From contig JAHCJZ010000005.1 of the NCBI GenBank assembly GCA_026126025.1, positions 1 through 64,000 of the forward strand: DNA of 64,000 nt. The letters run 5' to 3'. The DNA is from Bauldia sp. (GTDB lineage Bacteria; Pseudomonadota; Alphaproteobacteria; Rhizobiales; Kaistiaceae). Made by a program: the position numbers and the translations under genes. This document shows positions 2,648-26,152 of this stretch, piece by piece. The notes beneath the pieces were generated by a model. The model searched no databases, had not been told where the DNA came from, and was given only the letters and a program-made list of their open reading frames with translations. Position 1 is the first letter of the stretch. Each line of letters begins with the position of its first letter.

Positions 2648-2733
2648 GGGGGAGTGTCCCGAGTGGCAAAGGGGGCGGACTGTAAATCCGCTGGCGAACG
2701 CCTTCGTAGGTTCGAGTCCTACCTCCCCCACCA
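2648..2733 (+). tRNA. tRNA-Tyr (anticodon GTA)
   Basis: An 86-base class II tRNA with a long variable arm. The acceptor stem GGGGGAG pairs with CTCCCCC, discriminator A is followed by encoded CCA, the anticodon loop CTGTAAA reads GTA, and the T loop is TTCGAGT. Confidence 0.97.
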
Positions 2734-2755
2734 TCGCATCGGGTCCCTGGCTCCG

Positions 2756-2829
2756 GCGGGTGTAGCTCAATGGTAGAGCAACAGCCTTCCAAGCTGATGA
2801 CGAGGGTTCGATTCCCTTCACCCGCTCCA
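2756..2829 (+). tRNA. tRNA-Gly (anticodon TCC)
   Basis: A 74-base tRNA. The acceptor GCGGGTG pairs with CACCCGC, discriminator T is followed by encoded CCA (2827-2829), and the anticodon loop CTTCCAA reads TCC. It marks the left border of locus A. Confidence 0.97.
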
Positions 2830-2871
2830 ATTTCCCGCCGCTCCGGCCATGTCCGGGCCGGGCTGCGGCGA

Positions 2872-3633
2872 TTGCTTCTGGCCCTGCCGCTCGCCGCACT
2901 GGCCTGCGTCCAACCCGCCCTGGCCGATCAGCGGGCTGATTTCCTCGCCGGCATCACCGTCGACTGCCCGGGCTGCGATCTGGCGGGCGTGATGCTGAAG
3001 CGCTCCGTGCTCGACGGCGCCGACCTCTCCGGCGCGAGCCTCGTCGGCGCCAACCTGCACGATGCCTCGCTGGCCGGCGCCAATCTGCGCGGCGCCGACC
3101 TCACCGAGGCCAATCTCAACAAGGCCGTCCTCCGCCAGGCCGATCTCAGCGGCGCGACGTTACGGGGGGCGCTGCTCTTTGCCGCCGATCTCAGCGGGGC
3201 GATCGCGGTCGAGGCCGACTTTGAGGGCGCGCGGATGGGTGAATCGACCTGGACCCGCGCCGACCTCGCCGGCGCCAGCATGATCGGCACCAACCTCAGG
3301 AACGCGCGGATGGGCCGCGCAAGCCTCGTCGGGGTGGACTTCCGCGGCTCGATCCTGGAGGGCGTCCACTTGGCGCTGGCCGATCTCAGCGGAGCGAACC
3401 TGTCACGGACGCTGATGGTGGCGGCGCAGCTCCGGGGCGCGATCCTGCGCGCCGCTCTCGTCCAGGGCAGCGATCTCTATGGCGCGGATCTCCACGACGC
3501 GGACCTGACCGGTGCCGACTTCCGGGGCTCGCGCCTCACCACCGCGATCCTGACCAACGCTACGCTCGACGGCGCGCGCTTCGAGGAAGCGATCATGCCG
3601 GACGGCCGGCCTTGGACGGCCGGGGGCGGCTGA
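2872..3633 (+). CDS. Exported pentapeptide-repeat protein with N-terminal CPGC motif (locus A)
   Basis: After a hydrophobic export signal (LLLALPLAALACVQPALA) the mature protein opens with DCPGCDLAG. The rest is almost all A(D/N)LxxA pentapeptide repeats, which fold as a right-handed quadrilateral beta-helix, ending IMPDGRPWTAGGG. The same CPGC opening and IMPDGR ending occur in the C-terminal half of the fusion protein at 23891-25417, so the two are paralogous. Start: there is no ATG or GTG between the end of tRNA-Gly (2829) and the signal. TTG at 2872 is given, CTG at 2863 would add a more typical LRR n-region, and in-frame ATGs at 2770 and 2800 lie inside the tRNA. It is convergent with the four-cysteine gene, 7 bases away. 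Biochemical function unknown. Confidence 0.82.
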   Translation: MLLALPLAALACVQPALADQRADFLAGITVDCPGCDLAGVMLKRSVLDGADLSGASLVGANLHDASLAGANLRGADLTEANLNKAVLRQADLSGATLRGALLFAADLSGAIAVEADFEGARMGESTWTRADLAGASMIGTNLRNARMGRASLVGVDFRGSILEGVHLALADLSGANLSRTLMVAAQLRGAILRAALVQGSDLYGADLHDADLTGADFRGSRLTTAILTNATLDGARFEEAIMPDGRPWTAGGG

Positions 3634-3640
3634 CGCCGGC

Positions 3641-4363
3641 TCAGTCGGCGGGCCGATAGGGGTCCTGATAGACCTCCAGCCGTGCCGAGCTCTCGAAAAG
3701 ACCCGTGGTGACCCTGCCGGCGACGGGATCGATGGTGCTTTCGCCGGGACGGCGATAGTAGCGCGCCACGACCCGGAGGTTCAGGCCGTCCATCGACTTG
3801 GTGCATCTCTCGTCGACGAAGGCGTCGCCGACGGGCTGTCTGGCGTCGTCGGGCGGCGTCTCGATGCATGCCCATCCCTCCAGCCCGAACCGGTTCTTGT
3901 ACTGGTAGCGATAGGTATGGGCCGCCGCGCGCTGAACATCGGACACGCGATTGTCGGTGACGATGCGAAGCCCGCGCAGGACGCCGGCGGGATCGAACAA
4001 TGCGGAAACGATCGACGGCGCCCCGAACGGCCGCGTCCCGCTCAGCCTTTCGATCCAGGCCTCGATTTCGTACGCGCGGGCGACGTATTCCTGCTCGTCA
4101 TCATATCCGAACTGGACCTCGCGAAGGCCGTCGGGCTCGGGCTGGCAGGTGAGGAAGTCGGCGAAGCTGCTCAACGGCCGCGCGGGCGGACCGCCGTTCG
4201 TTCCGCAGGCATAGTCCTGGTAGTCCAGCCGCGGAATCGACGCTGCCTCGGCCCCCAGCTCAAGGTTCCAGATATCCGGCGGACGGTTGAATTGCGCGTA
4301 AACGGGTGCCGGCGCCAGCAGAGCGCCGATGGTCAGGCCCAATACGATTGGGAGCTGGCGCAT
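3641..4363 (-). CDS. Exported four-cysteine 'CGTNGGPP' domain protein of unknown function (locus A)
   Basis: A 240-residue protein with a clear Sec signal (residues 1-23, cleavage after VYA). I do not recognise the domain. Its landmarks are CGTNGGPP (53-60), FADFLTCQP (68-76), REVQFGYDDE (81-90), SALFDPAGVLRGLRIVTDNRV (split here as SALFDPAGVLRG, 120-131, and LRIVTDNRV, 132-140), GWAC (163-166) and a C-terminal SARLEVY. Four cysteines (53, 73, 166, 187) all align with cysteines in the first half of the fusion protein at 23891-25417, suggesting two disulfides in the periplasm. It is divergent from the cytochrome c gene (99-base shared upstream region) and convergent with the pentapeptide gene. 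A role beside quinoprotein oxidation is inferred from context only. Confidence 0.85.
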   Translation of the reverse strand: MRQLPIVLGLTIGALLAPAPVYAQFNRPPDIWNLELGAEAASIPRLDYQDYACGTNGGPPARPLSSFADFLTCQPEPDGLREVQFGYDDEQEYVARAYEIEAWIERLSGTRPFGAPSIVSALFDPAGVLRGLRIVTDNRVSDVQRAAAHTYRYQYKNRFGLEGWACIETPPDDARQPVGDAFVDERCTKSMDGLNLRVVARYYRRPGESTIDPVAGRVTTGLFESSARLEVYQDPYRPAD

Positions 4364-4462
4364 GTTCAGCTACGATACCGATGCAAACCATGCCCTGCCA
4401 AGGCCGCATGCGACCATCCCGACACCGGCAGGTCTGGATAGAAAAATGCTGGGAGGAAAGGA

Positions 4463-5014
4463 ATGCTGGTTCAAGGATCGGGAAGGGGAAGACTGCTCGG
4501 TATCGTGACGGCGTGCTGCGTGCTTGTCGCGGGCATCGGCGGGCTGGAGGCAGGGACGGGCGCCGACGATGGCGGTGAAGCCCCGGCAATCAGCGACTCG
4601 CAGATCGCCTTCGGCAAGACGGTCTACCAGACGCGAGCCAGCTGCATCGTTTGTCACGGCTGGTCCGGCAATGGCGACGCCGCCGAGCGCGCCGCAGCGC
4701 CAGGCCTGTCGCTTCGCGAGACAGTGTTGACGCGCGACCAGCTGATCGAAGTGGTCAAATGCGGACGCCCCGGCACCAACATGCCGTATCACGACTCGTT
4801 CGCCTACACCGACGACCGCTGCTACGGCGTCACCGCCGCGGAGCTCGGCGACCAGATGCCGACGCGCACCATCGCCTCCACCCTGCAGCGTCGTGAGATC
4901 GAGGCGGTCGTCGACTATCTGATCGCCCGGGTCGTCGGCCGCGGTGAGATCACCCTGGCCGAATGCGAGGAATTCTGGGAGCCGGGTGCGCGGGCCTGCG
5001 CAGAGTACCAGTGA
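4463..5014 (+). CDS. Exported class I c-type cytochrome next to a PQQ dehydrogenase
   Basis: A 183-residue protein with an N-terminal signal (hydrophobic residues about 11-30) and one heme c site CIVCH (61-65). The probable sixth ligand is Met107 in GRPGTNMPYHD. Extra cysteines (100, 120, and two near the C-terminus) suggest disulfides. The pattern 'CGRPGTxMPYHD...DDRCYG...EIEAVVDYL' matches small cytochromes commonly found beside PQQ-dependent dehydrogenases. The likely job is to accept electrons from the quinoprotein at 5086-6846 in the periplasm and pass them toward an oxidase. A strong ribosome site (GGAGGAAAG, 4452-4460) supports the start. The gene converges with the dehydrogenase, separated by a hairpin. 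Locus B has no cytochrome counterpart. Confidence 0.9.
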   Translation: MLVQGSGRGRLLGIVTACCVLVAGIGGLEAGTGADDGGEAPAISDSQIAFGKTVYQTRASCIVCHGWSGNGDAAERAAAPGLSLRETVLTRDQLIEVVKCGRPGTNMPYHDSFAYTDDRCYGVTAAELGDQMPTRTIASTLQRREIEAVVDYLIARVVGRGEITLAECEEFWEPGARACAEYQ

Positions 5015-5036
5015 CGCGGCTTGCGCTTCGAAATGA

Positions 5037-5065
5037 GGAAGGGGCGGCCGGTGGCCGCCCCTTCC
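5037..5065. terminator. Hairpin between the convergent cytochrome c and PQQ dehydrogenase genes
   Basis: A 13-base perfect GC-rich stem (5037-5049 with 5053-5065) has a 3-base loop. There is no good T tract on either side, so termination strength is uncertain, but the position suggests a bidirectional terminator. Confidence 0.7.
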
Positions 5066-5085
5066 CGTTGGTCCGGGCTTCGCGC

Positions 5086-6846
5086 CTAGAGCCCGAAGAC
5101 GAACAGCATCGAGGTGGTCCGGATGTTCTGGACCTCCGGATGCCCGACCAGGTTGCCGCGGGCGATGAAGCCGACACCGGCGAGGATCGCGACATACTGA
5201 TCCCCGTTGACGGCGAAGGACATCGGCGGCGCGTTGAGCGGCGTGCCGAGATTGACGCTCCAGAGCTCCTCGAGCGTCTCGTCATTGTACGCCTTGACGC
5301 TGCCGTCGAGATAGCCGGAGAAGATCAGCCCGCCCGCGGTCGACAGGATGCCGCTGTAATTCGCGTAGGGCTCGACGATCTGGGTCGCGATCGTGCCGGT
5401 CGCCACGTCGACGGCCGTCAGGGTCGCGTTGGTCTGCGCGTTGACAGGCGTGATAGCGCCGAAGCCGGGGTCGTCCCCGACCACCCAGTCGCCGGGATTG
5501 AACGGGATCTGATCGATGCGCGAGCAGTTTTCCGTGCCGACGATGTAGTAGAGACCGGTCGCCGGATTGTAGGCGGACGGGAAGTAGTTGTTGCCGCCGC
5601 CGATCGTCGGGCAGGCCTCGACGACCGGGTTGTCGTGCGTCGGCGCGACGCCGGCATAGGGCTGGAAGTCCGCGTTCTCGACGTACTCGACGGGCATGCC
5701 CGTCTTCGGATCGAGACCGGCGGTCCAGTTCAGCGCCAGAACGTACTGGACGCCGTTGACGAACTCGCCGGTGCCGGCGTCCAGCGTGTAGTAGAAGCCG
5801 TTGCGCGCCGAGTGCGCGACCACACGGCGCATCTGGCCGTCCACCTCGAGATCGATCAGCGTGTGAACGCCGACCTCGTCATAATCCCACGAGTCGTTCG
5901 GCGTGTACTGGAAATACCAGACGATCTCGCCCGTATCGCCATCAAGGCCCAGCGCGCTGTTGGTGTAGAGATTGTCGCCCGGACGATAGGACGCGTCGAA
6001 GTCCGGTGCCGGGTTGCCCGTGCCCCAGATCACGATGTTGTTGTCCGGATCATAGGAGCCCGTGACCCAGCCTGATCCACCGCCGGTCTGCCACGCGTTC
6101 CAGTCGTCCTTCCATGTCTCCGAGCCGGGCTCGCCGGGAGCCGGGATGATCCAGCGCCGCCAGGCCTGCTCGCCTGTTTCGGTGTCGTAGGCGTCGATCC
6201 AGCCCCGGATGCCCGAATCCGCGCCTGAAACGCCGATCACCAGCTTGTCCTCGAGCGCGAGCGGAGCGACGGTCAGATACTCGACGCTGTCCGGCGAGGT
6301 CGCCTGAATGTCGTAGAGCAGCTCGCCGGTTGCGGCCGCCGTCTGCAGGAGGCGGCCGTCGAATGAGACGGAGTAGACGTTGTCGCCGAACAGGGCCACG
6401 CCGCGATTGGCGCGAATGCCGGGCTCCGACGGATCGACGCCCGGGTTCATTTCCCATTGGATCAGACCTCGGTCGCCCGAGCTGACGTCGATCCGCGTCA
6501 CCACGCCCCACCCGTCGGTGATGTACATCGCCCCGTCGTCGACGAGAGGAGTCCCCTGCATCGAATTGTTGCCGGTCTCGACGCCGCTCACCGCAACCGC
6601 GTACGCAAGGCGCAGGCCGCCGACATTGTCGCGGTTGATCATGTCGAGCCCGGAATGACGATGGGCCGAGTAGTTGCCGTGGTTGGTCAGCCAGTTCTGC
6701 GGTTCTGCGTCGGCGTTCAGTAGGCGCTCATAGGTGACGTCCGCCGCTGCGGGCGTGACCATCACCGCGGCAAGGGCCGCGATAGAAACAGAGCCGAAAT
6801 ACCTCACGACCCGGCGTCTTGCGGTGCGTTGTGGTTGCATGTTCAT
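5086..6846 (-). CDS. Exported PQQ-dependent (quinoprotein) alcohol-type dehydrogenase, DYD/lanthanide-type active site (locus A)
   Basis: A 586-residue eight-bladed beta-propeller with an Arg-rich Tat/Sec-like signal (cleavage near AAA/D36). It should oxidise an alcohol or aldehyde in the periplasm with PQQ and a metal. Visible signatures: GTGNPAP (Asn278, metal ligand), SWDYD (catalytic-base Asp321 plus Asp323), RNG (Arg348), GLDPKTGMP, tryptophan-docking repeats such as DTETGEQAW and DGDTGEIVW, and the C-terminal LFVFGL. Asp323, two residues after the catalytic Asp, is the extra ligand found in lanthanide-dependent XoxF/ExaF/PedH enzymes. Two oddities: the metal ligand Glu of the family is Asp210 (GVSGAD), and the adjacent-cysteine pair before the NRGVA segment is missing. 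It is paralogous to 22095-23798. The substrate cannot be read from sequence. GGGGGAGGA precedes the ATG. Confidence 0.93.
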   Translation of the reverse strand: MNMQPQRTARRRVVRYFGSVSIAALAAVMVTPAAADVTYERLLNADAEPQNWLTNHGNYSAHRHSGLDMINRDNVGGLRLAYAVAVSGVETGNNSMQGTPLVDDGAMYITDGWGVVTRIDVSSGDRGLIQWEMNPGVDPSEPGIRANRGVALFGDNVYSVSFDGRLLQTAAATGELLYDIQATSPDSVEYLTVAPLALEDKLVIGVSGADSGIRGWIDAYDTETGEQAWRRWIIPAPGEPGSETWKDDWNAWQTGGGSGWVTGSYDPDNNIVIWGTGNPAPDFDASYRPGDNLYTNSALGLDGDTGEIVWYFQYTPNDSWDYDEVGVHTLIDLEVDGQMRRVVAHSARNGFYYTLDAGTGEFVNGVQYVLALNWTAGLDPKTGMPVEYVENADFQPYAGVAPTHDNPVVEACPTIGGGNNYFPSAYNPATGLYYIVGTENCSRIDQIPFNPGDWVVGDDPGFGAITPVNAQTNATLTAVDVATGTIATQIVEPYANYSGILSTAGGLIFSGYLDGSVKAYNDETLEELWSVNLGTPLNAPPMSFAVNGDQYVAILAGVGFIARGNLVGHPEVQNIRTTSMLFVFGL

Positions 6847-6891
6847 TCCTCCCCCATTCTTGTGTAGCGCCCATTGTTCTTCGGGCGCTTG

Positions 6892-6919
6892 ATGCTAGCC
6901 CCGGCTCGCTTGATGTCAA
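6892..6919 (-). promoter_or_regulatory. Sigma-70 promoter of the locus A PQQ dehydrogenase
   Basis: Reading leftward: -35 TTGACA (6919-6914), a 16-base spacer, and -10 TAGCAT (6897-6892), about 45 bases before the start codon. A second TTGACA lies 13 bases further upstream (6932-6927), giving a tandem repeat that could be an alternative -35 or an operator half-site. Confidence 0.6.
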
Positions 6920-7089
6920 CGAACCTTGTCAAGTGGGGCAGGGGCCTCCTCAAGCGGCACTGACTGCCCGAATTTGCGGCAGGGACGGCGCGGGAACAGT
7001 TCGCCGACGGGGCGCCATCAGGCTTCCAAGACGCCACCGTTCGTCCGGGCGCGGTGGATGGTCATGGCCGCCTGCGCTATGATGGCACT

Positions 7090-7668
7090 ATGAACGTCGC
7101 GCTGACCCATAAGGCCGAAGGGCTGGAGCGCCGCGCTTTCACCATCGCGGATGTCGAGCGGATGGTGGAAGCCGGCATCATCTCGCCCGACGAGCGGCTG
7201 GAAATCCTCGGCGGGGAGATCGTGCCGATGTCGCCAAAGGGATCCCGGCACGAGTTGATCAAAAACGCTATCAACCGCCAGTGGGGAGTGCGGTGCCCGC
7301 AGAGGTTCGGGTTCGTTCCGGAGACAGGCCTGCGGCTTTCATCGGACACCTATCTTGAGCCGGATTTCATCGTATACGAGCTGGCCGTGGGGCTGATTGC
7401 GGTGAAGGGGCCGAACGTCCTCCTTGCCGTGGAAGTGGCTGACGCTTCGCTCGGTTACGACCTCGGGCGTAAGCCCGCGATCTACGCAGAGTTCGGCGTG
7501 CACGAGCTTTGGGTGATCGACGCGGTGGCGCGGAAGGTCCATGTCTTCCGCGGCGTCGGGCCGACCGGCTATGCCGAGCGGAGCACGGTCGCGGCGTCCG
7601 ACCGCGTGGTTCCGGCCGTGGCACCCGAGGCGTTCGCCATCACGCTCGACGCGCTGCCGCCGGTCTAG
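7090..7668 (+). CDS. Uma2-family (DUF820) PD-(D/E)XK nuclease-like protein
   Basis: About 192 residues with the Uma2 fold pattern: an N-terminal LEILGGEIVPMSPKGSRHE, then EPDFIVYE (the PD of the motif), then LLAVEVADASLGYD (acidic E-V-x-D), then a terminal VHELWVIDAVARKVHVFR strand pair. The family is widespread in cyanobacteria and soil bacteria. It is annotated as restriction-endonuclease-like, but its biological role is not settled. ATG 7090 fits where family members begin; an in-frame ATG at 7054 adds 12 unrelated residues. It has no export signal, so it is unrelated in compartment to locus A. It converges with the XRE gene (16 bases). The two could be a small accessory insertion between tRNA-Gly and tRNA-Trp. 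Confidence 0.85.
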   Translation: MNVALTHKAEGLERRAFTIADVERMVEAGIISPDERLEILGGEIVPMSPKGSRHELIKNAINRQWGVRCPQRFGFVPETGLRLSSDTYLEPDFIVYELAVGLIAVKGPNVLLAVEVADASLGYDLGRKPAIYAEFGVHELWVIDAVARKVHVFRGVGPTGYAERSTVAASDRVVPAVAPEAFAITLDALPPV

Positions 7669-7684
7669 GTGGGACGCGCTGCGA

Positions 7685-8029
7685 TCAGATGAGGTCGTCG
7701 ACGGCAACACCGAGCGCCGCAGCGATCTTCGCTAAGTACTCGGTGGTTCCGGTCCGGGCTCCACCCTCGATCTGGACGATGTAGGGCTGGGACAGGCCGG
7801 CCGCGGCGGCCAGCTGCGTGGTGGACAGGCCGCGATACTCACGCAGCACGCGGACGGGGCTCTCCCAGCCGATCAGCCGGTCGGCAACCTCGGACGGGAT
7901 GAGCTCTTCAACACCGGCGGCGAGGGCCTCGCGGAAGCGGCGGACCGCATCGCGGTCCACGGCATCGTCAGCTGCATCCAGCGAGGTCGCGGACGCGCTG
8001 CGGGGCTGGGTTGGGCGCATCGACGGCAT
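7685..8029 (-). CDS. XRE-family DNA-binding protein, antitoxin-like
   Basis: A 114-residue protein. The N-terminal half is helical, with DRLIGWESPVRVLREYRGLS, a linker typical of type II antitoxins of the HigA/RelB-XRE kind. The C-terminal half is a Cro/CI helix-turn-helix (TQLAAAAGLSQPYIVQIE) followed by LAKIAAALGVAVDDL. Such proteins bind their own promoter and neutralise a partner toxin. No toxin gene is visible on the upstream side (8030-8268) or beyond, so it is either an orphan or a transcription regulator. The start could be Met1 (8029) or Met4 (8020). An AT-rich patch at about 8114-8126, unusual here, probably holds its promoter or operator. Confidence 0.82.
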   Translation of the reverse strand: MPSMRPTQPRSASATSLDAADDAVDRDAVRRFREALAAGVEELIPSEVADRLIGWESPVRVLREYRGLSTTQLAAAAGLSQPYIVQIEGGARTGTTEYLAKIAAALGVAVDDLI

Positions 8030-8268
8030 CGCGTTCTATGGAGTGATGGAACGCCGCTGCCTCATGCCCCGCTTGCGCGGTCCTTGAGCTTACGTCCGGT
8101 AACGTCGCGACAACTAGATATATTATCGCACGGTGACGATCAGCAACATGGTCATCGACGAGCGAGGCCCGTATCTGTTGGGCGCGCCCTTGCTCGCCTT
8201 GATCCGCGACCATCGGCCGGCGCGAAACCTTGACACCGCGCGCACCGGCTGACACCTGTCGCCGGGAT
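8030..8268. other. Gene-free stretch upstream of tRNA-Trp
   Basis: No supported gene. It holds an AT-rich patch (AGATATATTATC, about 8116-8127), likely the XRE promoter/operator, and a perfect TTGACA at 8230-8235 that may be the -35 box for tRNA-Trp and secE. No convincing -10 follows it. Confidence 0.4.
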
Positions 8269-8344
8269 AGGGGTGTAGCTCAGCTGGTAGAGCACCGGTC
8301 TCCAAAACCGGTGGCCGCAGGTTCGAGTCCTGCCGCCCCTGCCA
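8269..8344 (+). tRNA. tRNA-Trp (anticodon CCA)
   Basis: A 76-base tRNA. The acceptor AGGGGTG pairs with CGCCCCT, discriminator G is followed by encoded CCA (8342-8344), the anticodon loop TCTCCAAAA contains CCA, and the T loop is TTCGAGT. tRNA-Trp directly before secE is the conserved proteobacterial order. The tuf copy that often precedes it is absent here. Confidence 0.97.
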
Positions 8345-16365: not shown

Positions 16366-20559
<4,194 letters not shown>

Positions 20560-20585
20560 GCACGCGCCGTCAGGGCAATTGCATC

Positions 20586-20617
20586 AAGGCCGCGGTGGCA
20601 ACACCGCGGCCTTTCCC
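20586..20617 (+). terminator. Intrinsic terminator of rpoBC
   Basis: A 12-base perfect stem (20586-20597 with 20602-20613) has a GCAA tetraloop and is followed by TTTCCCTTT. It is the same design as the csp terminator. Confidence 0.93.
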
Positions 20618-20703
20618 TTTCTGGACCGCGATCAGCTCAGGCCGCGCCCCGTTTTTTCAACCTCCCCGCAAGGGGAGGGTTGAAGAGCGGTGATCCGCCG
20701 GCT

Positions 20704-21888
20704 CTACGTCCGCGGTTTGGTCGGGCGCGGGAGCACCACGCCGCCGAAGAGGATCAGCGCCCCGGCGAGGCCGACCGAGGAGAGGGCGACCGTCAGCCCG
20801 GAGGCGTCGGCGATGAAGCCGATGATCGGCGGCCAGGAGAGGAAGCCGACATAGCCGAGCGTCGCCACCGCCGCGATACCGAAGGCCGGCGTCGTCGCGA
20901 TCCGCGCGCCGCGGCTGAAGAGCACCGGCACGACATTGGCGGCGCCGACGCCGACGAGCCCGAAGCCGAGCGCGGCGACGATCGGCTCCGGCGCGGCAAG
21001 CGCGATGGCGTTGCCGATGGCGATCAGCGCGCCGCCGACGATGAGGAGCGCCCGGCCGCCGAAGCGGTTGACCAGCCAGTCGCCCGAGAGCCGCATCACC
21101 GACATGGCAAGGGCGAAGGCGGCGTAGCCCGCGCCGGCGATCGCCGGCGTCGCGTCGCGGATCTCGGTGAGGAAGAGCGCGCTCCAGTCCGCCACCGCGC
21201 CTTCCAGGCCGAAGCTCAGAAATGTGAGAAGTCCGAGAGCCAAAAGCTTTCGGTCAGGCAGCGCGAGGCGAGGGCCGGTGGCGGGCGGGCGCTCCTCGCG
21301 CAAGAGCCAGATACGCGCGAACCACGCGATCACCACCATCGCCGCGCAGACCCCCGCCGCGCCCCATCCGCGCCCGAGCCCGACCGCGACGAGGGCGGCG
21401 GCCAGCCCGGCTCCGGCAAGGCCGCCGAGGCTGTAGAAGCCGTGGAGCACCGACATGGTGGGACGGGCGAGGGCGGCTTCGACTTCGGCGGCCTGGGTGT
21501 TCATCGACACGTCGAGGACGCCCATGCCCGCCCCGAAGATGAACGCGGCGAGGAACAGAAGCTCGACGCTCGGCGAAAGGATCGTGACCGCCGCGGTGAA
21601 CGGGAAGAGGATCGACGCGATCGCCGTCAGCTGCCGCGAACCGAACCGGCCGACCGCCCAGCCGGTCGCAAGCATCGAGACGAACGCGCCGGCGGCAAGC
21701 ACGAGGAGGACGACGCCGAGCAGCGCTTCCCCCAGCTCGAGGCGCCGCGCGATGATCGGGATGTGCACCGCCCACAATCCACCGGCGAGACCGAGATTGA
21801 AGAAGGCGACGGCAATCGCGACGCGCGCCTTGAGGAGATCCGACGACGAGACGCGAGCGCTCGCGACGGTGACGGCAAGGTTGTCCAT
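20704..21888 (-). CDS. Major facilitator superfamily transporter, YbjJ-like
   Basis: A 394-residue integral membrane protein with about 12 hydrophobic spans in two halves. It has the MFS motif-A-like loop GWAVGRFGSRQL after span 2 and a matching GDWLVNRFGGRAL in the second half. DVSMNTQA after span 4 is typical of the YbjJ/fucose-permease-like subgroup. The substrate is unknown and may be a sugar or a drug. It faces left, tail-to-tail with rpoC, and diverges from the locus B dehydrogenase, sharing a 206-base upstream region with it. It is not an established part of quinoprotein systems. Confidence 0.9.
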   Translation of the reverse strand: MDNLAVTVASARVSSSDLLKARVAIAVAFFNLGLAGGLWAVHIPIIARRLELGEALLGVVLLVLAAGAFVSMLATGWAVGRFGSRQLTAIASILFPFTAAVTILSPSVELLFLAAFIFGAGMGVLDVSMNTQAAEVEAALARPTMSVLHGFYSLGGLAGAGLAAALVAVGLGRGWGAAGVCAAMVVIAWFARIWLLREERPPATGPRLALPDRKLLALGLLTFLSFGLEGAVADWSALFLTEIRDATPAIAGAGYAAFALAMSVMRLSGDWLVNRFGGRALLIVGGALIAIGNAIALAAPEPIVAALGFGLVGVGAANVVPVLFSRGARIATTPAFGIAAVATLGYVGFLSWPPIIGFIADASGLTVALSSVGLAGALILFGGVVLPRPTKPRT

Positions 21889-22094
21889 GGAGGGTCCGAG
21901 GCAGGTGGAGGGACATCATATCGCGTCTCGACGCGAACGGGTTGTCCCCCCCAATGGGAACCATTTCCTTGCACATCCTCGTTCGTTGACTTAGGCTTCG
22001 AACGCGGGTTTCGGCCCGCCATGACAAAAAGCAACACAGCAGCATCGGTAGCAGAGGACTCAACTCCGCACCGACTCTAGGGAGGAAACATCAA

Positions 22095-23798
22095 ATGCGA
22101 GTACCCGCGAAGTTGGCGGGCGTTGGAGCTATTGCGCTCCTCGCCGGCACTGCCCTTTCGACCGGTGCTTCGGCGCAGGTCACCTATGATCGTCTCCTGA
22201 ATCCGGAGCCGGAAAACTGGCTGACCCACAACCTGACCTATGACGGTCACCGTTATTCGCTGCTCGACGAGATCAATACCGGCAATGTCGGCGATCTTCG
22301 CGTGGCGTTCACCCTGCCTCTCATGCCGCATATCCACGCTGGTCTTGGCAGCGGCCAGGGAACGCCGCTCGTCGACAACGGCATCATGTACATGGTCGAC
22401 ATGTTCGGTGTCGTCTATCGCATCGACGTCTCGTCCGGCCGTCAGGCTCGGATCAATTGGATCATGGATCCGGAGACCGACCCCGAAAGCTTCGCTCTCG
22501 CGAACAACAAGGGCGTCGCCCTGTTCGGAGACACCGTCTATTCGGCCGAAGCCGACGGTCTGTTGATCGCGACCGATGCCGCCTCCGGCGAAGTGCTGTG
22601 GCAGGTCGACACCCGGATCGATCCCGACGAAGAATTCACGATGGCCCCGCTGGCGCTGGACGGCATGATCATCAACGGCCCGAGAGGCGACGCGCCGATG
22701 AGGGGCTGGCTGGATGCCCGCAGCACCGAAGACGGGTCGCAGATCTGGCATTTCTGGGCGGTTCCGGCGCCGGGCGAGCCAGGCGGCGAAACCTGGCCGG
22801 CGGACAACGACGCCTATCTGGTGAGCGGCACGTCGTTCTGGGTCACCGGCACCTACGATTCGGAATCCAACCTGCTCTTCTACGGCACGTCCAACCCCAC
22901 TCCGTTCGGCGACCCGACCCTGCGCGCCGGCGACAATCTGTACAGCCAGGCTACCGTGGCGCTGGACGCCGACACCGGCCAGCTGGCGTGGTACTTCCAG
23001 TACACGCCGCAGGACCAGTGGGATTACGACGAGAACGGCACCAATCAGGTCATCCGGACCGCCGACGGCGAGTTCCGGATCGGCCATTTCGGCCGCAACG
23101 GCTTCGCCTACATCCTGGATGGGGCGACCGGCGAGTTCATCAACGGCGTCCAATACGTCAATGAGGTGAACTGGACCGCCGGCCTCGATCCCAAGACCGG
23201 CATGCCGATCGAGTACGACCCGGCGCTGCGTGAGGGTGGCTACCAGCAATACGCCATCAACCCCTACGCCGTTGCCGAGGACGGCGCGCTCGCGGCGGCC
23301 GGCATCGTCCGCTCCGAGTTGATCTGCCCCCACATCCAGGGCGGCAACAACCACTGGCCGACCAGCTACAGCGATCGCACCGGCCTCATGTATGCCACGG
23401 CGATCGAGGGCTGCAGCCGCGGCGATCCGGCGGCCCCGATAACGGGATCGGTGATTGCTGTCGATGCCGACGGCAACATCGCCAACAAGGTCCCGATTCC
23501 GTTCGCGCCCTATGGCGGCCAGCTGACCACGGCCGGCGGCCTGCTGTTCTCGAACATGGTCAATGGCGACATCTTCGCGATGGACGACACCACGCTCGAG
23601 GTTCTGTGGAGCTTCAACGTCGGTACGGCCATCGAGGCGCCGCCGATCACCTACGCTGTTGACGGCAAGCAGTACATCGCAGTGCTGGTGGGCAACGGAC
23701 GGCTCAGCCGCGGCCATGCGGCACGCGGGGAGGATCCCAGTGGCGAGCCGCTGCTGAATCTTCAGCCGGCCTATACGATGTACTTCTTCACGCTCTAG
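22095..23798 (+). CDS. Exported PQQ-dependent (quinoprotein) alcohol-type dehydrogenase, DYD/lanthanide-type active site (locus B)
   Basis: A 567-residue paralogue of the locus A enzyme. The signal peptide (1-27, cleavage ASA/Q) is followed by an eight-bladed propeller. Signatures: GTSNPTP (Asn267, metal ligand), QWDYD (catalytic-base Asp310 and extra Asp312), RNG (Arg334), WTAGLDPKTGMPIEY, and a C-terminal YFFTL. The Asp-Tyr-Asp pattern predicts a lanthanide-binding site. As in locus A, the family's ligand Glu appears as Asp (Asp199 in RGDAPMRGW), and the adjacent Cys-Cys pair is absent (ALANNKGVA instead). GGAGGAAAC precedes the ATG. It is followed by a strong terminator and then the fusion gene. 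No cytochrome gene lies nearby, so its electron acceptor would be encoded elsewhere, possibly in locus A. Confidence 0.93.
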   Translation: MRVPAKLAGVGAIALLAGTALSTGASAQVTYDRLLNPEPENWLTHNLTYDGHRYSLLDEINTGNVGDLRVAFTLPLMPHIHAGLGSGQGTPLVDNGIMYMVDMFGVVYRIDVSSGRQARINWIMDPETDPESFALANNKGVALFGDTVYSAEADGLLIATDAASGEVLWQVDTRIDPDEEFTMAPLALDGMIINGPRGDAPMRGWLDARSTEDGSQIWHFWAVPAPGEPGGETWPADNDAYLVSGTSFWVTGTYDSESNLLFYGTSNPTPFGDPTLRAGDNLYSQATVALDADTGQLAWYFQYTPQDQWDYDENGTNQVIRTADGEFRIGHFGRNGFAYILDGATGEFINGVQYVNEVNWTAGLDPKTGMPIEYDPALREGGYQQYAINPYAVAEDGALAAAGIVRSELICPHIQGGNNHWPTSYSDRTGLMYATAIEGCSRGDPAAPITGSVIAVDADGNIANKVPIPFAPYGGQLTTAGGLLFSNMVNGDIFAMDDTTLEVLWSFNVGTAIEAPPITYAVDGKQYIAVLVGNGRLSRGHAARGEDPSGEPLLNLQPAYTMYFFTL

Positions 23799-23810
23799 GG
23801 CTGAAAGGAC

Positions 23811-23850
23811 CTGCCGGCGCGGCGATGGAGCCGCGCCGGCAGTTTTCTTT
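23811..23850 (+). terminator. Strong intrinsic terminator after the locus B PQQ dehydrogenase
   Basis: A perfect 13-base stem (23811-23823 with 23830-23842) has a 6-base loop and is followed by TTTTCTTT. It separates the dehydrogenase from the fusion gene, so the latter needs read-through or its own promoter. Confidence 0.95.
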
Positions 23851-23890
23851 CGCACCGCTTATGGGAACGGCTCCGTCGAGCGAACAGCCG

Positions 23891-25417
23891 ATGCGCTTGA
23901 ACATCCTTCCCGTCGCCGCTCTGCGGCGCCGTTTCGTCGTCTCCGCTACCGCGTTCGTCATTGCTTTCGCTCCGCTTGGCGCGAACGAGGTCCTGGCGCA
24001 GGGCCTCGTCCAGGGCCCTCCGAATATTCGCGATCTCGTGCTCGGCGCGCCGATCTCTGCCCAGCCGCAGGAATTCCAAGAGTTCGCCTGCGGCACCAAT
24101 GGCGGTCCCCCCTCGCTTCCGATCAGCGGATTCGCTGATTTCGCCCGGTGCAGGCCCGAGGCGTCAGGCTTGCGCGAAGTCCAGTTCCGTTACGACGACG
24201 AGCTGCACTATCGCGCGCTCGCCATACGCGATGAGCTTCGTGCTGAGTTCCTCCAGGGTACCCGGTTCGGCAACTTCGGGATTCTGGCTTCGGTGCTGTT
24301 CGATGATTCGGGTATTCTGAGGGGGATCCGCGCCGTGACCGACGACCGGGTCACCGACGACGACCGCCGCAGCGCGTACGGGATGGCCGAGTATGTTCGT
24401 GCGATCTACCGATCCGACGGCTGGGAGTGTTCGCAACTGCCACCAGCGGAAGGCGAGACGCCGATCGGTGACCGGCTGGTCAAGGAAGACTGTCGCAAGA
24501 TCACCGAGAACGGCGTGCTGATCACCACCGAGGCGCGCCTGCTGCAGCGGCAGGGCCAAAGCCTCATAGACCCGGCGAACGGGCAGCTGCGGCCCGGATA
24601 CTTCATCAGCACCGGCCGGATGGAGATGTACGAAGCGGACGCCGACGGCAATCCGATTTACGGCGACGTGGGCGGGACGCCGGTGACGCCGGTAACCGAG
24701 ATCCCCCCGACGCCCGCCGACCCGGTTGAGGCGTTCCTGGTGGGTGCAATGAACGATTGCCCCGGTTGCGATCTTGCCGGCGCAGACCTGAAACGGCGCA
24801 ATCTGGCGGGGGCCGACCTCAGCGGTGCCAATCTGACGGGAGCCACCCTTCACCGCGCCGTGCTTGCCGGTGCGATTCTCGATGGCGCCAACCTCCTCGG
24901 TGCCAATCTCAATGCGGCCGACCTCAAGAACGCCAGCCTCGTCGGCGCCGATCTGTCTTATTCGCTCCTCTTCCTGACCGACGCTGCAGCCGCCGACTTC
25001 TCGCAAGCCATCCTCGACTACACCGTGGTCGATCAGGCGCGGTTCACCGGCGCCACGATGATCGGGGTCCAGTGGCGGGACGCGGTGGGCACAGTCGGCA
25101 CCAACCTCGCAGGAGCCGATCTTAGCGGGGCGGACATGACCCGTGCCTACCTGCCGGACGCCGATTTCCAGCGCGCCAGGCTCGTCGGCGCCAATCTGAC
25201 CGACGTCTACTTCTTCAGCGTCAGGCTGCGCGCCGCCGATCTGACCGGCGTCACCGCGTTGCGCGCCGATTTCCTGCAGGCCGACCTCGCGGAAGCCATC
25301 TTCGTCGACGCGGACCTGACCGAAGCGCGTCTCCTGCGCGCCCGCACCACCGGCATCGACCTTTCCGGTGCCAACCTGACGGAGACGATCATGCCGGACG
25401 GGAGGGTAGGCCAATAA
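23891..25417 (+). CDS. Exported fusion: four-cysteine CGTNGGPP domain plus CPGC pentapeptide-repeat domain (locus B)
   Basis: A 508-residue protein with a signal peptide (1-37, cleavage VLA/Q). Residues about 42-250 match the separate 240-residue protein at 3641-4363: CGTNGGPP (67-74), FADFARC (81-87), LREVQFRYDDE (94-104) and all four cysteines (67, 87, 180, 201). A Pro/Thr-rich linker follows (about 258-278). From NDCPGCDLAGADLKRRNLAG onward comes a pentapeptide-repeat beta-helix matching the gene at 2872-3633, including the terminal TIMPDGR. ATG 23891 is chosen because it gives a clean signal peptide; in-frame ATGs at 23825 (inside the terminator) and 23861 are less likely. I know of no described function. 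The fusion implies that the two locus A proteins work together. Confidence 0.88.
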   Translation: MRLNILPVAALRRRFVVSATAFVIAFAPLGANEVLAQGLVQGPPNIRDLVLGAPISAQPQEFQEFACGTNGGPPSLPISGFADFARCRPEASGLREVQFRYDDELHYRALAIRDELRAEFLQGTRFGNFGILASVLFDDSGILRGIRAVTDDRVTDDDRRSAYGMAEYVRAIYRSDGWECSQLPPAEGETPIGDRLVKEDCRKITENGVLITTEARLLQRQGQSLIDPANGQLRPGYFISTGRMEMYEADADGNPIYGDVGGTPVTPVTEIPPTPADPVEAFLVGAMNDCPGCDLAGADLKRRNLAGADLSGANLTGATLHRAVLAGAILDGANLLGANLNAADLKNASLVGADLSYSLLFLTDAAAADFSQAILDYTVVDQARFTGATMIGVQWRDAVGTVGTNLAGADLSGADMTRAYLPDADFQRARLVGANLTDVYFFSVRLRAADLTGVTALRADFLQADLAEAIFVDADLTEARLLRARTTGIDLSGANLTETIMPDGRVGQ

Positions 25418-25780
25418 GGCCGACCGCCGGGCCTTGCGGTGATCGTGCGTCGCCTCCACCTATGGGCTCGCGGATTCACCGGGACTGCGACCAAACCGCC
25501 GGAAAATCGTGGTCCCGAGGGGTTGACCCGGTAGGGCCGAGTCAGTAGGGTCCGCGCGCTTTCGACAGGCCGTAGGTTTTCCAAGCTCAGGGCGGCGCCT
25601 CGCCGCGGAACGACGAAGCCTAAACGCTGGCGAAGACACGACAAACGGTCAGTGCAATCGCACGATCGCGGCTTGCCGTGATCCTCTGCCGTTTCGGAGC
25701 GCCTGCCGATGCAATCGGTTCCGGCGCTCTTTCAACGTATTCTGGGCGATGCGCGGCATCGCCCCAGCGAAGGACTGGGA
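25418..25780 (+). promoter_or_regulatory. Upstream region and candidate promoter of the rpsL-rplQ superoperon
   Basis: No coding sequence is supported in these 363 bases. A candidate sigma-70 promoter is -35 TTGACC (25523-25528), a 17-base spacer, and TAGGGT (25546-25551). This leaves a leader of about 220 bases before rpsL, long enough for regulation. The -10 match is only moderate. Confidence 0.5.
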
Positions 25781-26152
25781 ATGCCGACAGTCAACCAGCT
25801 CATCCGCAAGCCGCGGCAGGCGCCGCCCCAGCGCAACAAGGTGCCGGCGCTGCAGCAGAACCCGCAGAAGCGGGGCGTTTGCACGCGCGTCTACACCACG
25901 ACCCCGAAGAAGCCGAACTCGGCGCTGCGGAAGGTCGCCAAGGTGCGCCTGCAGAACGGCTTCGAGGTGATCGGCTACATCCCGGGCGAGGGGCACAACC
26001 TCCAGGAGCACTCGGTCGTCATGATCCGCGGCGGCCGCGTGAAGGACCTTCCGGGCGTGCGCTACCACATCATCCGCGGCGTCCTGGACACCCAGGGCGT
26101 GAAGGACCGTCGCCAGCGCCGGTCGAAATATGGAGCGAAGCGGCCGAAGTGA
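25781..26152 (+). CDS. rpsL: 30S ribosomal protein S12
   Basis: A 123-residue decoding-centre protein with [19 protein letters not shown] and [13 protein letters not shown]. Lys43, the classic streptomycin-resistance position, is wild type. ATG 25781 matches the family start [10 protein letters not shown]; upstream in-frame sequence is leader. It is the first gene of the str-S10-spc-alpha superoperon. Confidence 0.98.

What the first reader, a model, noticed from the sequence alone, without database searches (positions are those of the whole stretch)
23891..25417. Rosetta-stone fusion: an unknown four-cysteine domain joined to a pentapeptide-repeat domain that are separate genes in locus A
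The 508-residue protein aligns in its first half with the protein at 3641-4363 and in its second half with the protein at 2872-3633. It shares CGTNGGPP, four cysteines, CPGC and IMPDGR. Separate-versus-fused partners usually interact. Both versions sit next to a PQQ dehydrogenase, so this looks like an undescribed periplasmic or surface module tied to quinoprotein oxidation.
Basis: partly seen in the sequence, partly recalled or inferred. Interest (0 to 1): 0.9.

Follow-up and report, generated by a model that had tools for sequence, protein, structure and literature searches.

The report
New partner domain of alcohol-oxidising enzymes
A secreted protein domain with four conserved cysteines, for which I found no description, travels with one branch of PQQ-dependent dehydrogenases in Alphaproteobacteria, often fused to a pentapeptide-repeat domain, and looks like a dedicated helper of these enzymes.

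Summary
The 508-aa protein joins an exported four-cysteine domain ("C4") to a pentapeptide-repeat (PPR) domain; locus A has them as separate genes, 46% and 43% identical. The window's C4 protein matches no Pfam, NCBIfam, PHROG or PDB sequence, and its confident predicted fold has no clear PDB match. The same genome holds 20 C4 copies, 18 fused to PPR, and 51 PQQ-dehydrogenase genes. In 76 loci from a scan of named genomes, 78 of 81 C4 ORFs have a PQQ dehydrogenase within 3 kb, and 76 of 81 a PPR fused or within 3 kb. C4 keeps to one dehydrogenase clade: here 36 of its 43 members lie within 15 kb of a C4, against 0 of 8 of the other clade. Part is known: Pseudomonas ped/qed clusters have a PPR protein (PedD/QedB) beside a PQQ dehydrogenase and cytochrome c. 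I found no description of C4 or its recurrent fusion to PPR. Most likely C4-PPR is an accessory (assembly or docking) subunit in the slot that MoxJ/XoxJ/PedG fills elsewhere. No interaction was shown.

The parts
22095..23798 (+). Locus B PQQ dehydrogenase, 567 aa, exported (signal judged by eye), no haem domain matched; lacks the vicinal Cys pair, keeps the WDYD motif
23891..25417 (+). C4-PPR fusion protein, 508 aa, N-terminal export signal judged by eye
24017..24640 (+). C4 domain (four-cysteine domain, residues about 43-250 of the fusion)
24722..25417 (+). Pentapeptide-repeat quadrilateral beta-helix (residues about 278-508)
   Evidence: PF00805 E 1.9e-42; strand about every five residues and HetL as best fold match
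2872..3633 (+). Locus A separate pentapeptide-repeat protein, 253 aa, tail to tail with the C4 gene, 7 bases between the two stops
3641..4363 (-). Locus A separate C4 protein, 240 aa, export signal judged by eye
4463..5014 (+). Locus A small c-type cytochrome (CIVCH), 183 aa
   Evidence: PF13442 E 4.2e-7; relatives lie within 5 kb of 68 of 81 external C4 ORFs
5086..6846 (-). Locus A PQQ dehydrogenase, 586 aa

Best explanation
The finding is one copy of a periplasmic quinoprotein cassette: PQQ dehydrogenase, C4, a pentapeptide-repeat protein and, in many copies, a small cytochrome c; C4 and PPR are fused in 41 of 105 non-duplicate copies. Shown: the parts, their conserved order, co-duplication as a unit, and the near restriction of C4 to one dehydrogenase clade in this genome. 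Inferred: C4-PPR is a non-catalytic accessory subunit of that dehydrogenase, with C4 held by two disulfides. It helps the enzyme acquire or keep PQQ and its metal, or docks it to the cytochrome. It would thus work like MoxJ/XoxJ/PedG, of which none was found beside a C4, together with a PedD-like PPR. Electrons would run from substrate to PQQ to cytochrome c. In arrays with several dehydrogenases and one C4-PPR, one helper would serve several enzymes.
For: Linkage: a DH within 3 kb of 78 of 81 external C4 ORFs, PPR fused (22) or within 3 kb (54), cytochrome within 5 kb of 68. In the own genome 18 of 20 have a DH within 3 kb, against about 12% expected from a crude coverage estimate, p about 6e-15. 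Fixed order: nearest DH upstream on the same strand in 59 of 65 scored external cases after removing duplicates. Co-diversification within one genome, partners shuffled 5000 times: C4-DH r 0.76 (18 cassettes) and 0.64 (15), no shuffle as high; DH-cytochrome 0.92 (8) and 0.81 (9), 2 and 7 shuffles as high. Clade specificity: 36 of 43 against 0 of 8 DHs within 15 kb of a C4, Fisher p 1e-5. Fused/separate needs 4 changes on the C4 tree, at least 3 forced by starred branches. PqqC is present in 4 of 4 C4 genomes tested. No MoxJ-type match (TIGR03871, E<=1e-5) in the own genome, G089 or G370; in the other C4 genomes the matches lie on other contigs or over 100 kb from the C4 loci found. Precedent: PedD beside PedE/PedF, with a growth defect of a truncation reported in a review (passages).
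Against: No interaction, binding or phenotype data. Co-duplication of blocks explains much of the correlation without any contact, and the DHs counted in the clade test sit in arrays, so they are not independent. Nine of 14 C4 genomes searched also hold a MoxJ-type match of 190 bits or more, so C4 is not a genome-level replacement. A cytochrome lies within 5 kb of only 8 of 20 C4 genes in the own genome; locus B has none. 15 of 51 dehydrogenases of this genome lie more than 15 kb from any C4, 7 of them in the C4-type clade. C4 occurs without a dehydrogenase near it in L050 (fused to PPR), L067 (truncated, fused) and L204 (no PPR either).
Confidence: 0.5

Rival explanations
1. C4-PPR is a structural or surface protein (for example matrix or envelope attachment of the dehydrogenase, as proposed for PedD and biofilm) with no part in cofactor loading or electron flow.
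For: PedD is predicted extracellular and a biofilm role has been suggested in a review (passages); PPR beta-helices are often scaffolds (recalled); the window C4 has no family match and no clear fold match.
Against: C4 tracks one dehydrogenase clade inside a single genome, and the 4 divergent C4 loci have DH and cytochrome but no PPR.
Confidence: 0.2
2. C4 is a direct redox or cofactor-site element: it binds over the PQQ site or relays electrons, compensating for the missing vicinal disulfide of these dehydrogenases.
For: Only 5 of 132 dehydrogenases keep the vicinal Cys pair, while the floor Trp and the second Asp of the D-x-D motif are kept in 130 of 132 each. The four DHs of the divergent loci all keep the pair, and the C4 genes beside four of the five exceptions branch near the base of the C4 tree (weakly supported forks), so loss of the pair seems to follow C4 in time.
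Against: C4 accompanies dehydrogenases with and without the pair, so it cannot simply stand in for it; no CXXCH haem motif or known metal site was seen in C4 (read by eye).
Confidence: 0.12
3. Hitch-hiking: cassettes duplicate as DNA blocks in a genome with a runaway PQQ-dehydrogenase expansion, and C4-PPR is a neighbour, not a partner.
For: Strong within-genome co-duplication; tandem arrays.
Against: The link holds across Devosia, Rhodobacteraceae, Rhodopila and other alphaproteobacterial records, with conserved order, conserved cysteines and recurrent fusion or fission.
Confidence: 0.08

Closest known systems
ped/qed cluster of Pseudomonas (PedD/QedB pentapeptide protein, PedE, PedF; PMC12997753 abstract, outline and passages; PMC7188995 and PMC12875217 passages)
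   Same: PQQ alcohol dehydrogenase, c-type cytochrome and an exported PPR protein in one cluster
   Different: No C4-like protein in the cluster table passage seen; PedG (solute-binding type) is present there and was not found beside C4; orthology of PedD to this PPR not tested
xox/mxa methanol dehydrogenase clusters with XoxG/XoxJ or MxaG/MxaJ (recalled, and passages)
   Same: Dehydrogenase, dedicated cytochrome and an exported accessory protein
   Different: C4 shows no sequence relation to a MoxJ-like protein (hhalign probability 0.1%)
Mog1/PsbP/DcrB-like alpha-beta sandwich proteins (grouping recalled)
   Same: Present among the weak structural matches of C4: Mog1 Z 4.7, DcrB 4.2, PsbP 4.0
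   Different: Z under 6, tied with unrelated entries; 4-6% identity; not evidence of kinship

Membership tests
Pentapeptide repeat proteins (PF00805) | Tandem pentapeptide repeats over the Pfam cut-off | tested here: met
   Fusion 142.8 bits, locus A PPR 173.1 bits, cut-off 20.2; model with a strand about every five residues, HetL the best Foldseek match
PQQ dehydrogenases (PF01011) | Pfam PQQ propeller match | tested here: met
   167.3 and 196.8 bits, cut-off 26.7
PQQ methanol/ethanol dehydrogenases (TIGR03075) | Score over the NCBIfam cut-off | tested here: not met
   358.4 and 457.8 bits against 480.05: related, outside the curated subfamily
PQQ methanol/ethanol dehydrogenases (TIGR03075) | Vicinal Cys-Cys over PQQ (hallmark recalled) | tested here: not met
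   Absent in both window enzymes; present in 5 of 132 aligned relatives
Lanthanide-type PQQ dehydrogenases | Second Asp in the D-x-D motif (hallmark recalled) | tested here: met
   WDYD in both window enzymes; Asp in 130 of 132. Metal use itself untested
MoxJ/XoxJ/PedG accessory proteins | Match to TIGR03871/TIGR03870 or profile homology | tested here: not met
   No NCBIfam match of P0003 at E<=1; hhalign of A3 against a MoxJ-like protein of the genus (L163), probability 0.1%
MoxJ/XoxJ/PedG accessory proteins | Periplasmic solute-binding fold | tested here: inconclusive
   No such chain among the 50 rows listed in each search; absence from the lists does not exclude a fold
ped/qed cluster | PPR gene next to PQQ dehydrogenase and cytochrome c | tested here: met
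   Locus A of the window and external loci; locus B has no cytochrome gene of this type beside it
ped/qed cluster | PPR orthologous to PedD | not tested
   No PedD sequence was at hand
Mog1/PsbP-like fold | Clear structural match | tested here: inconclusive
   Foldseek none at E<=1e-3; VIA Z 4.0-4.7 for Mog1, DcrB and PsbP

The most novel reading that the evidence does not exclude
C4 founds a new family of quinoprotein assembly or electron-transfer subunits that arose beside a canonical lanthanide-type PQQ dehydrogenase, took over the MoxJ role in its cassettes, recruited and repeatedly fused to a pentapeptide helix, and by acting as a shared activator let the dehydrogenases drop the vicinal disulfide and radiate to dozens of paralogues in one 3.2-Mb genome.
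Probability: 0.25. Interest if true: 0.8.

Novelty: new variant of a known kind. Interest (0 to 1): 0.55.

Why it matters
PQQ and lanthanide-dependent dehydrogenases are of wide interest, yet how they are loaded and coupled is only partly known, and the pentapeptide partner PedD has no assigned function according to a 2026 review. A dedicated domain that keeps to one dehydrogenase clade and is fused to the pentapeptide protein gives a handle on both: it predicts that the PPR acts with the enzyme, and it names a partner to test. The genome also carries an unusual load of 51 PQQ dehydrogenase genes, 15 of them with Glu in place of the catalytic Asp.

Tried and rejected
C4 as a MoxJ/XoxJ/PedG homologue: rejected by sequence. 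C4 as a known family: no match of P0003 in Pfam, NCBIfam, PHROGs or PDB sequences at the thresholds used, none of an A3 profile in PDB, none of four divergent members in Pfam or NCBIfam. Of 64 A3 members scanned in Pfam, 3 matched Cu_amine_oxidN3 (best E 0.039), 2 DUF6965 (2e-4), 1 YL1_C and 1 Secapin; ten members rescanned singly gave nothing, but I do not know whether the two DUF6965 matches were among them. I take these as chance, unproven. C4 with a known fold: Foldseek best E 0.02 at probability 0.18, none at 1e-3; VIA best Z 5.7, which may be only a common arrangement. Idea 'C4 replaces MoxJ in the genome': weakened, 9 of 14 C4 genomes hold a MoxJ-type match of 190 bits or more. Idea 'C4 replaces the vicinal disulfide': weakened, divergent loci have both. 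Plasmid carriage of C4: no match.

Prior description: nine paper searches with pentapeptide, PQQ, quinoprotein, Devosia, Bauldia, exaA/PA1981 and vicinal-disulfide terms gave the Pseudomonas PedD/QedB papers; no listing or passage that I saw names a C4-like partner. The library is partial and I read passages only. The MxaJ assembly paper (PMC12276312) is not held; I know of it only through the review passage.

Rows dropped: of 120 C4 ORFs (39, 81), 91 entered the correlation and tree tests. Left out were 15 ORFs of 13 external loci whose genomes were already counted, cassettes without a DH or PPR within 3 kb, and fragments. The dehydrogenase motif counts use 132 proteins over 450 aa. The class-wide loci partly repeat the genome-contig loci, judged by equal contig lengths, so they are not an independent sample. 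The genome-contig scan used a CGTNGGP-type pattern and is biased to motif-bearing members; the profile searches are not, but score at most 7 candidates per genome. Trees are quick ones with a simple model and many open forks.

Full report
What is there. The protein at 23891-25417 is 508 aa. Its first half matches the 3641-4363 protein (46% over 208 columns, E 7e-56) and its second half the 2872-3633 protein (43% over 240 columns, E 9e-44). All three begin with what looks like an export signal (read by eye, not tested). The second half is an ordinary pentapeptide-repeat helix by Pfam and by the predicted structure. The first half, here called C4, has no Pfam or NCBIfam match in the fusion, and the separate C4 protein has none in Pfam, NCBIfam, PHROGs or PDB sequences. 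The neighbouring dehydrogenases are PQQ enzymes, 46% identical to each other. Locus A also has a small cytochrome c at 4463-5014; no match to it lies beside locus B.

A family, not a pair. The window's genome (3.2 Mb, 99.6% complete, 45 contigs) holds 20 C4 copies and 51 PQQ dehydrogenase genes. Eighteen of the 20 C4 copies are fused to a PPR, one (locus A) is separate and one lies at a contig end. Another genome of the family, G009, holds 17 C4 copies, 5 of them fused. Four of 61 genomes in the relatives search have C4; so do 8 of 385 drawn from the class and 4 of 398 from the phylum, each count including the own genome. It is patchy, and no match outside the class was seen in these samples. 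Named carriers include Bauldia and Devosia records, Maritimibacter alkaliphilus HTCC2654, Rhodopila globiformis and marine and lake MAGs. In the family search for PF01011, the 24 members outside the genus other than G009 have 0-3 matching stretches each; the two genus mates have 13 and 17, and 17 is the scoring cap.

Cassette architecture. In 76 loci from named genomes there are 81 C4 ORFs: 78 have a PQQ dehydrogenase within 3 kb, 22 are fused to a PPR, 54 have a separate PPR within 3 kb, and 68 have a cytochrome of the locus A type within 5 kb. The three without dehydrogenase are L097 (a 6.7-kb contig), L149 and L153 (C4 at a contig edge). Of the five without PPR, L121, L125 and L156 end near the gene; L094 and L115, from one MAG, do not. 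With 15 duplicate ORFs removed the figures are 65 of 66 for the dehydrogenase, 61 of 66 for the PPR and 61 of 66 for the cytochrome. In those 66, the dehydrogenase is upstream on the same strand in 59 of 65. Of 44 separate PPR genes 30 face C4 tail to tail, 23 of them within 10 bases or overlapping, and 12 follow it on the same strand. In the own genome only 8 of 20 C4 genes have a cytochrome within 5 kb. In class loci found by a C4 profile, 15 of 17 have a dehydrogenase and 15 of 17 a PPR; L204 has neither.

Divergent members. Four C4 relatives (L208, L212-L214) sit beside a dehydrogenase and a cytochrome, and none has a PPR in the 15-16 kb read. Three keep all four cysteines. The L208 gene appears split over two frames, with the first three in frame. 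Their dehydrogenases keep the vicinal Cys pair and a Glu where the window enzymes have Asp. In the main family 5 of 132 dehydrogenases keep the Cys pair. The C4 genes beside four of them branch near the base of the C4 tree; the fifth (L059) lies near a contig end without a C4 on that stretch. The simplest order of events is: C4 beside a canonical enzyme first, then PPR recruited, then the Cys pair lost. This is inference from a quick tree whose basal forks are weakly supported.

Fusion history. On a tree of 91 C4 domains plus the 4 divergent ones, fused/separate needs 4 changes, at least 3 forced by starred branches, against 29 for shuffled labels. Joining or splitting of C4 and PPR therefore happened more than once. 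This supports a working relationship but does not prove contact.

Co-diversification and clade specificity. Within the own genome, C4-dehydrogenase distances correlate at r 0.76 and C4-PPR at 0.67 over 18 cassettes; within G009 at 0.64 and 0.80 over 15; none of 5000 shuffles reached these. Dehydrogenase-cytochrome gives 0.92 (8 cassettes) and 0.81 (9). Co-duplication of whole blocks produces such values by itself. More telling, the 51 dehydrogenases of this genome fall into two well-supported clades. Of the 43 in one, 36 lie within 15 kb of a C4; of the 8 in the other, none; Fisher p 1e-5, with the caution that array members are not independent. The 8-member clade lies mostly (7 of 8) in an array on contig C2; one protein there is weakly related to MoxJ (E 2.8e-8).

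Structure. C4 is predicted with mean pLDDT 94 and pTM 0.88, the fusion with 88 and 0.78. Four Cys positions are invariant in 64 of 64 rows and 62 of 64 rows have exactly four Cys, as expected for two disulfides in an exported domain. A half-length member (L067) keeps only the first two, which hints at pairing C33-C53 and C146-C167. No PDB fold stands out; weak matches include Mog1, PsbP and DcrB among unrelated ones, all at Z under 6.

Function. Enzymes of this kind use a cytochrome and, in methanol dehydrogenase systems, a MoxJ/XoxJ/PedG-type protein that a review links to cofactor insertion into the apo-enzyme (passages). Pseudomonas adds the pentapeptide protein PedD; [quoted passage not shown] Its level falls together with PedE under lanthanum on glycerol and 2-phenylethanol. 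The cassettes here have dehydrogenase, PPR and often the cytochrome, but C4 where those clusters have PedG. The own genome has no MoxJ-type match at E 1e-5; 9 of 14 C4 genomes do have a strong one, but on other contigs or over 100 kb from the C4 loci found. I therefore read C4-PPR as an accessory subunit for assembly or docking, at about even odds. The organism can plausibly make PQQ: it has two pqqC genes, one about 1.4 kb from a C4 cassette. Substrates are unknown.

Verdict. A real, recurrent module with one domain for which I found no description, in a setting whose outline (PPR beside PQQ dehydrogenase and cytochrome) is already known from Pseudomonas. New variant of a known kind.

Noticed in passing
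window 2648-8344 and 16366-26152: Both cassettes sit among housekeeping genes: locus A between tRNA-Tyr/tRNA-Gly and tRNA-Trp, locus B between rpoC and rpsL (gene names for rpoC and rpsL from the translations, by recall).
   Followed up: partly
G000 whole genome (L043-L065): 51 PQQ dehydrogenase genes in 3.2 Mb, many in tandem arrays; 15 of 51 have Glu in place of the catalytic Asp.
   Followed up: partly
L059 and L061 (ends of G000 contigs C41 and C42): A dehydrogenase with vicinal Cys pair plus cytochrome and PPR near one contig end, and a lone C4 at another: possibly one cassette split by an assembly gap.
   Followed up: no
L046-L047 (G000 C2:40000-76000): Array of seven dehydrogenases of the other clade with other genes between them, one weakly MoxJ-like and one weakly solute-binding-like.
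   Followed up: partly
window 2770-3633: The longest ORF for the PPR gene overlaps tRNA-Gly (2756-2829), so an automatic start call at 2770 would be wrong.
   Followed up: yes
L076 (G009 C61) and L208 (G408): A dehydrogenase split in two ORFs and a C4 gene split over two frames: decayed copies or sequence errors.
   Followed up: no
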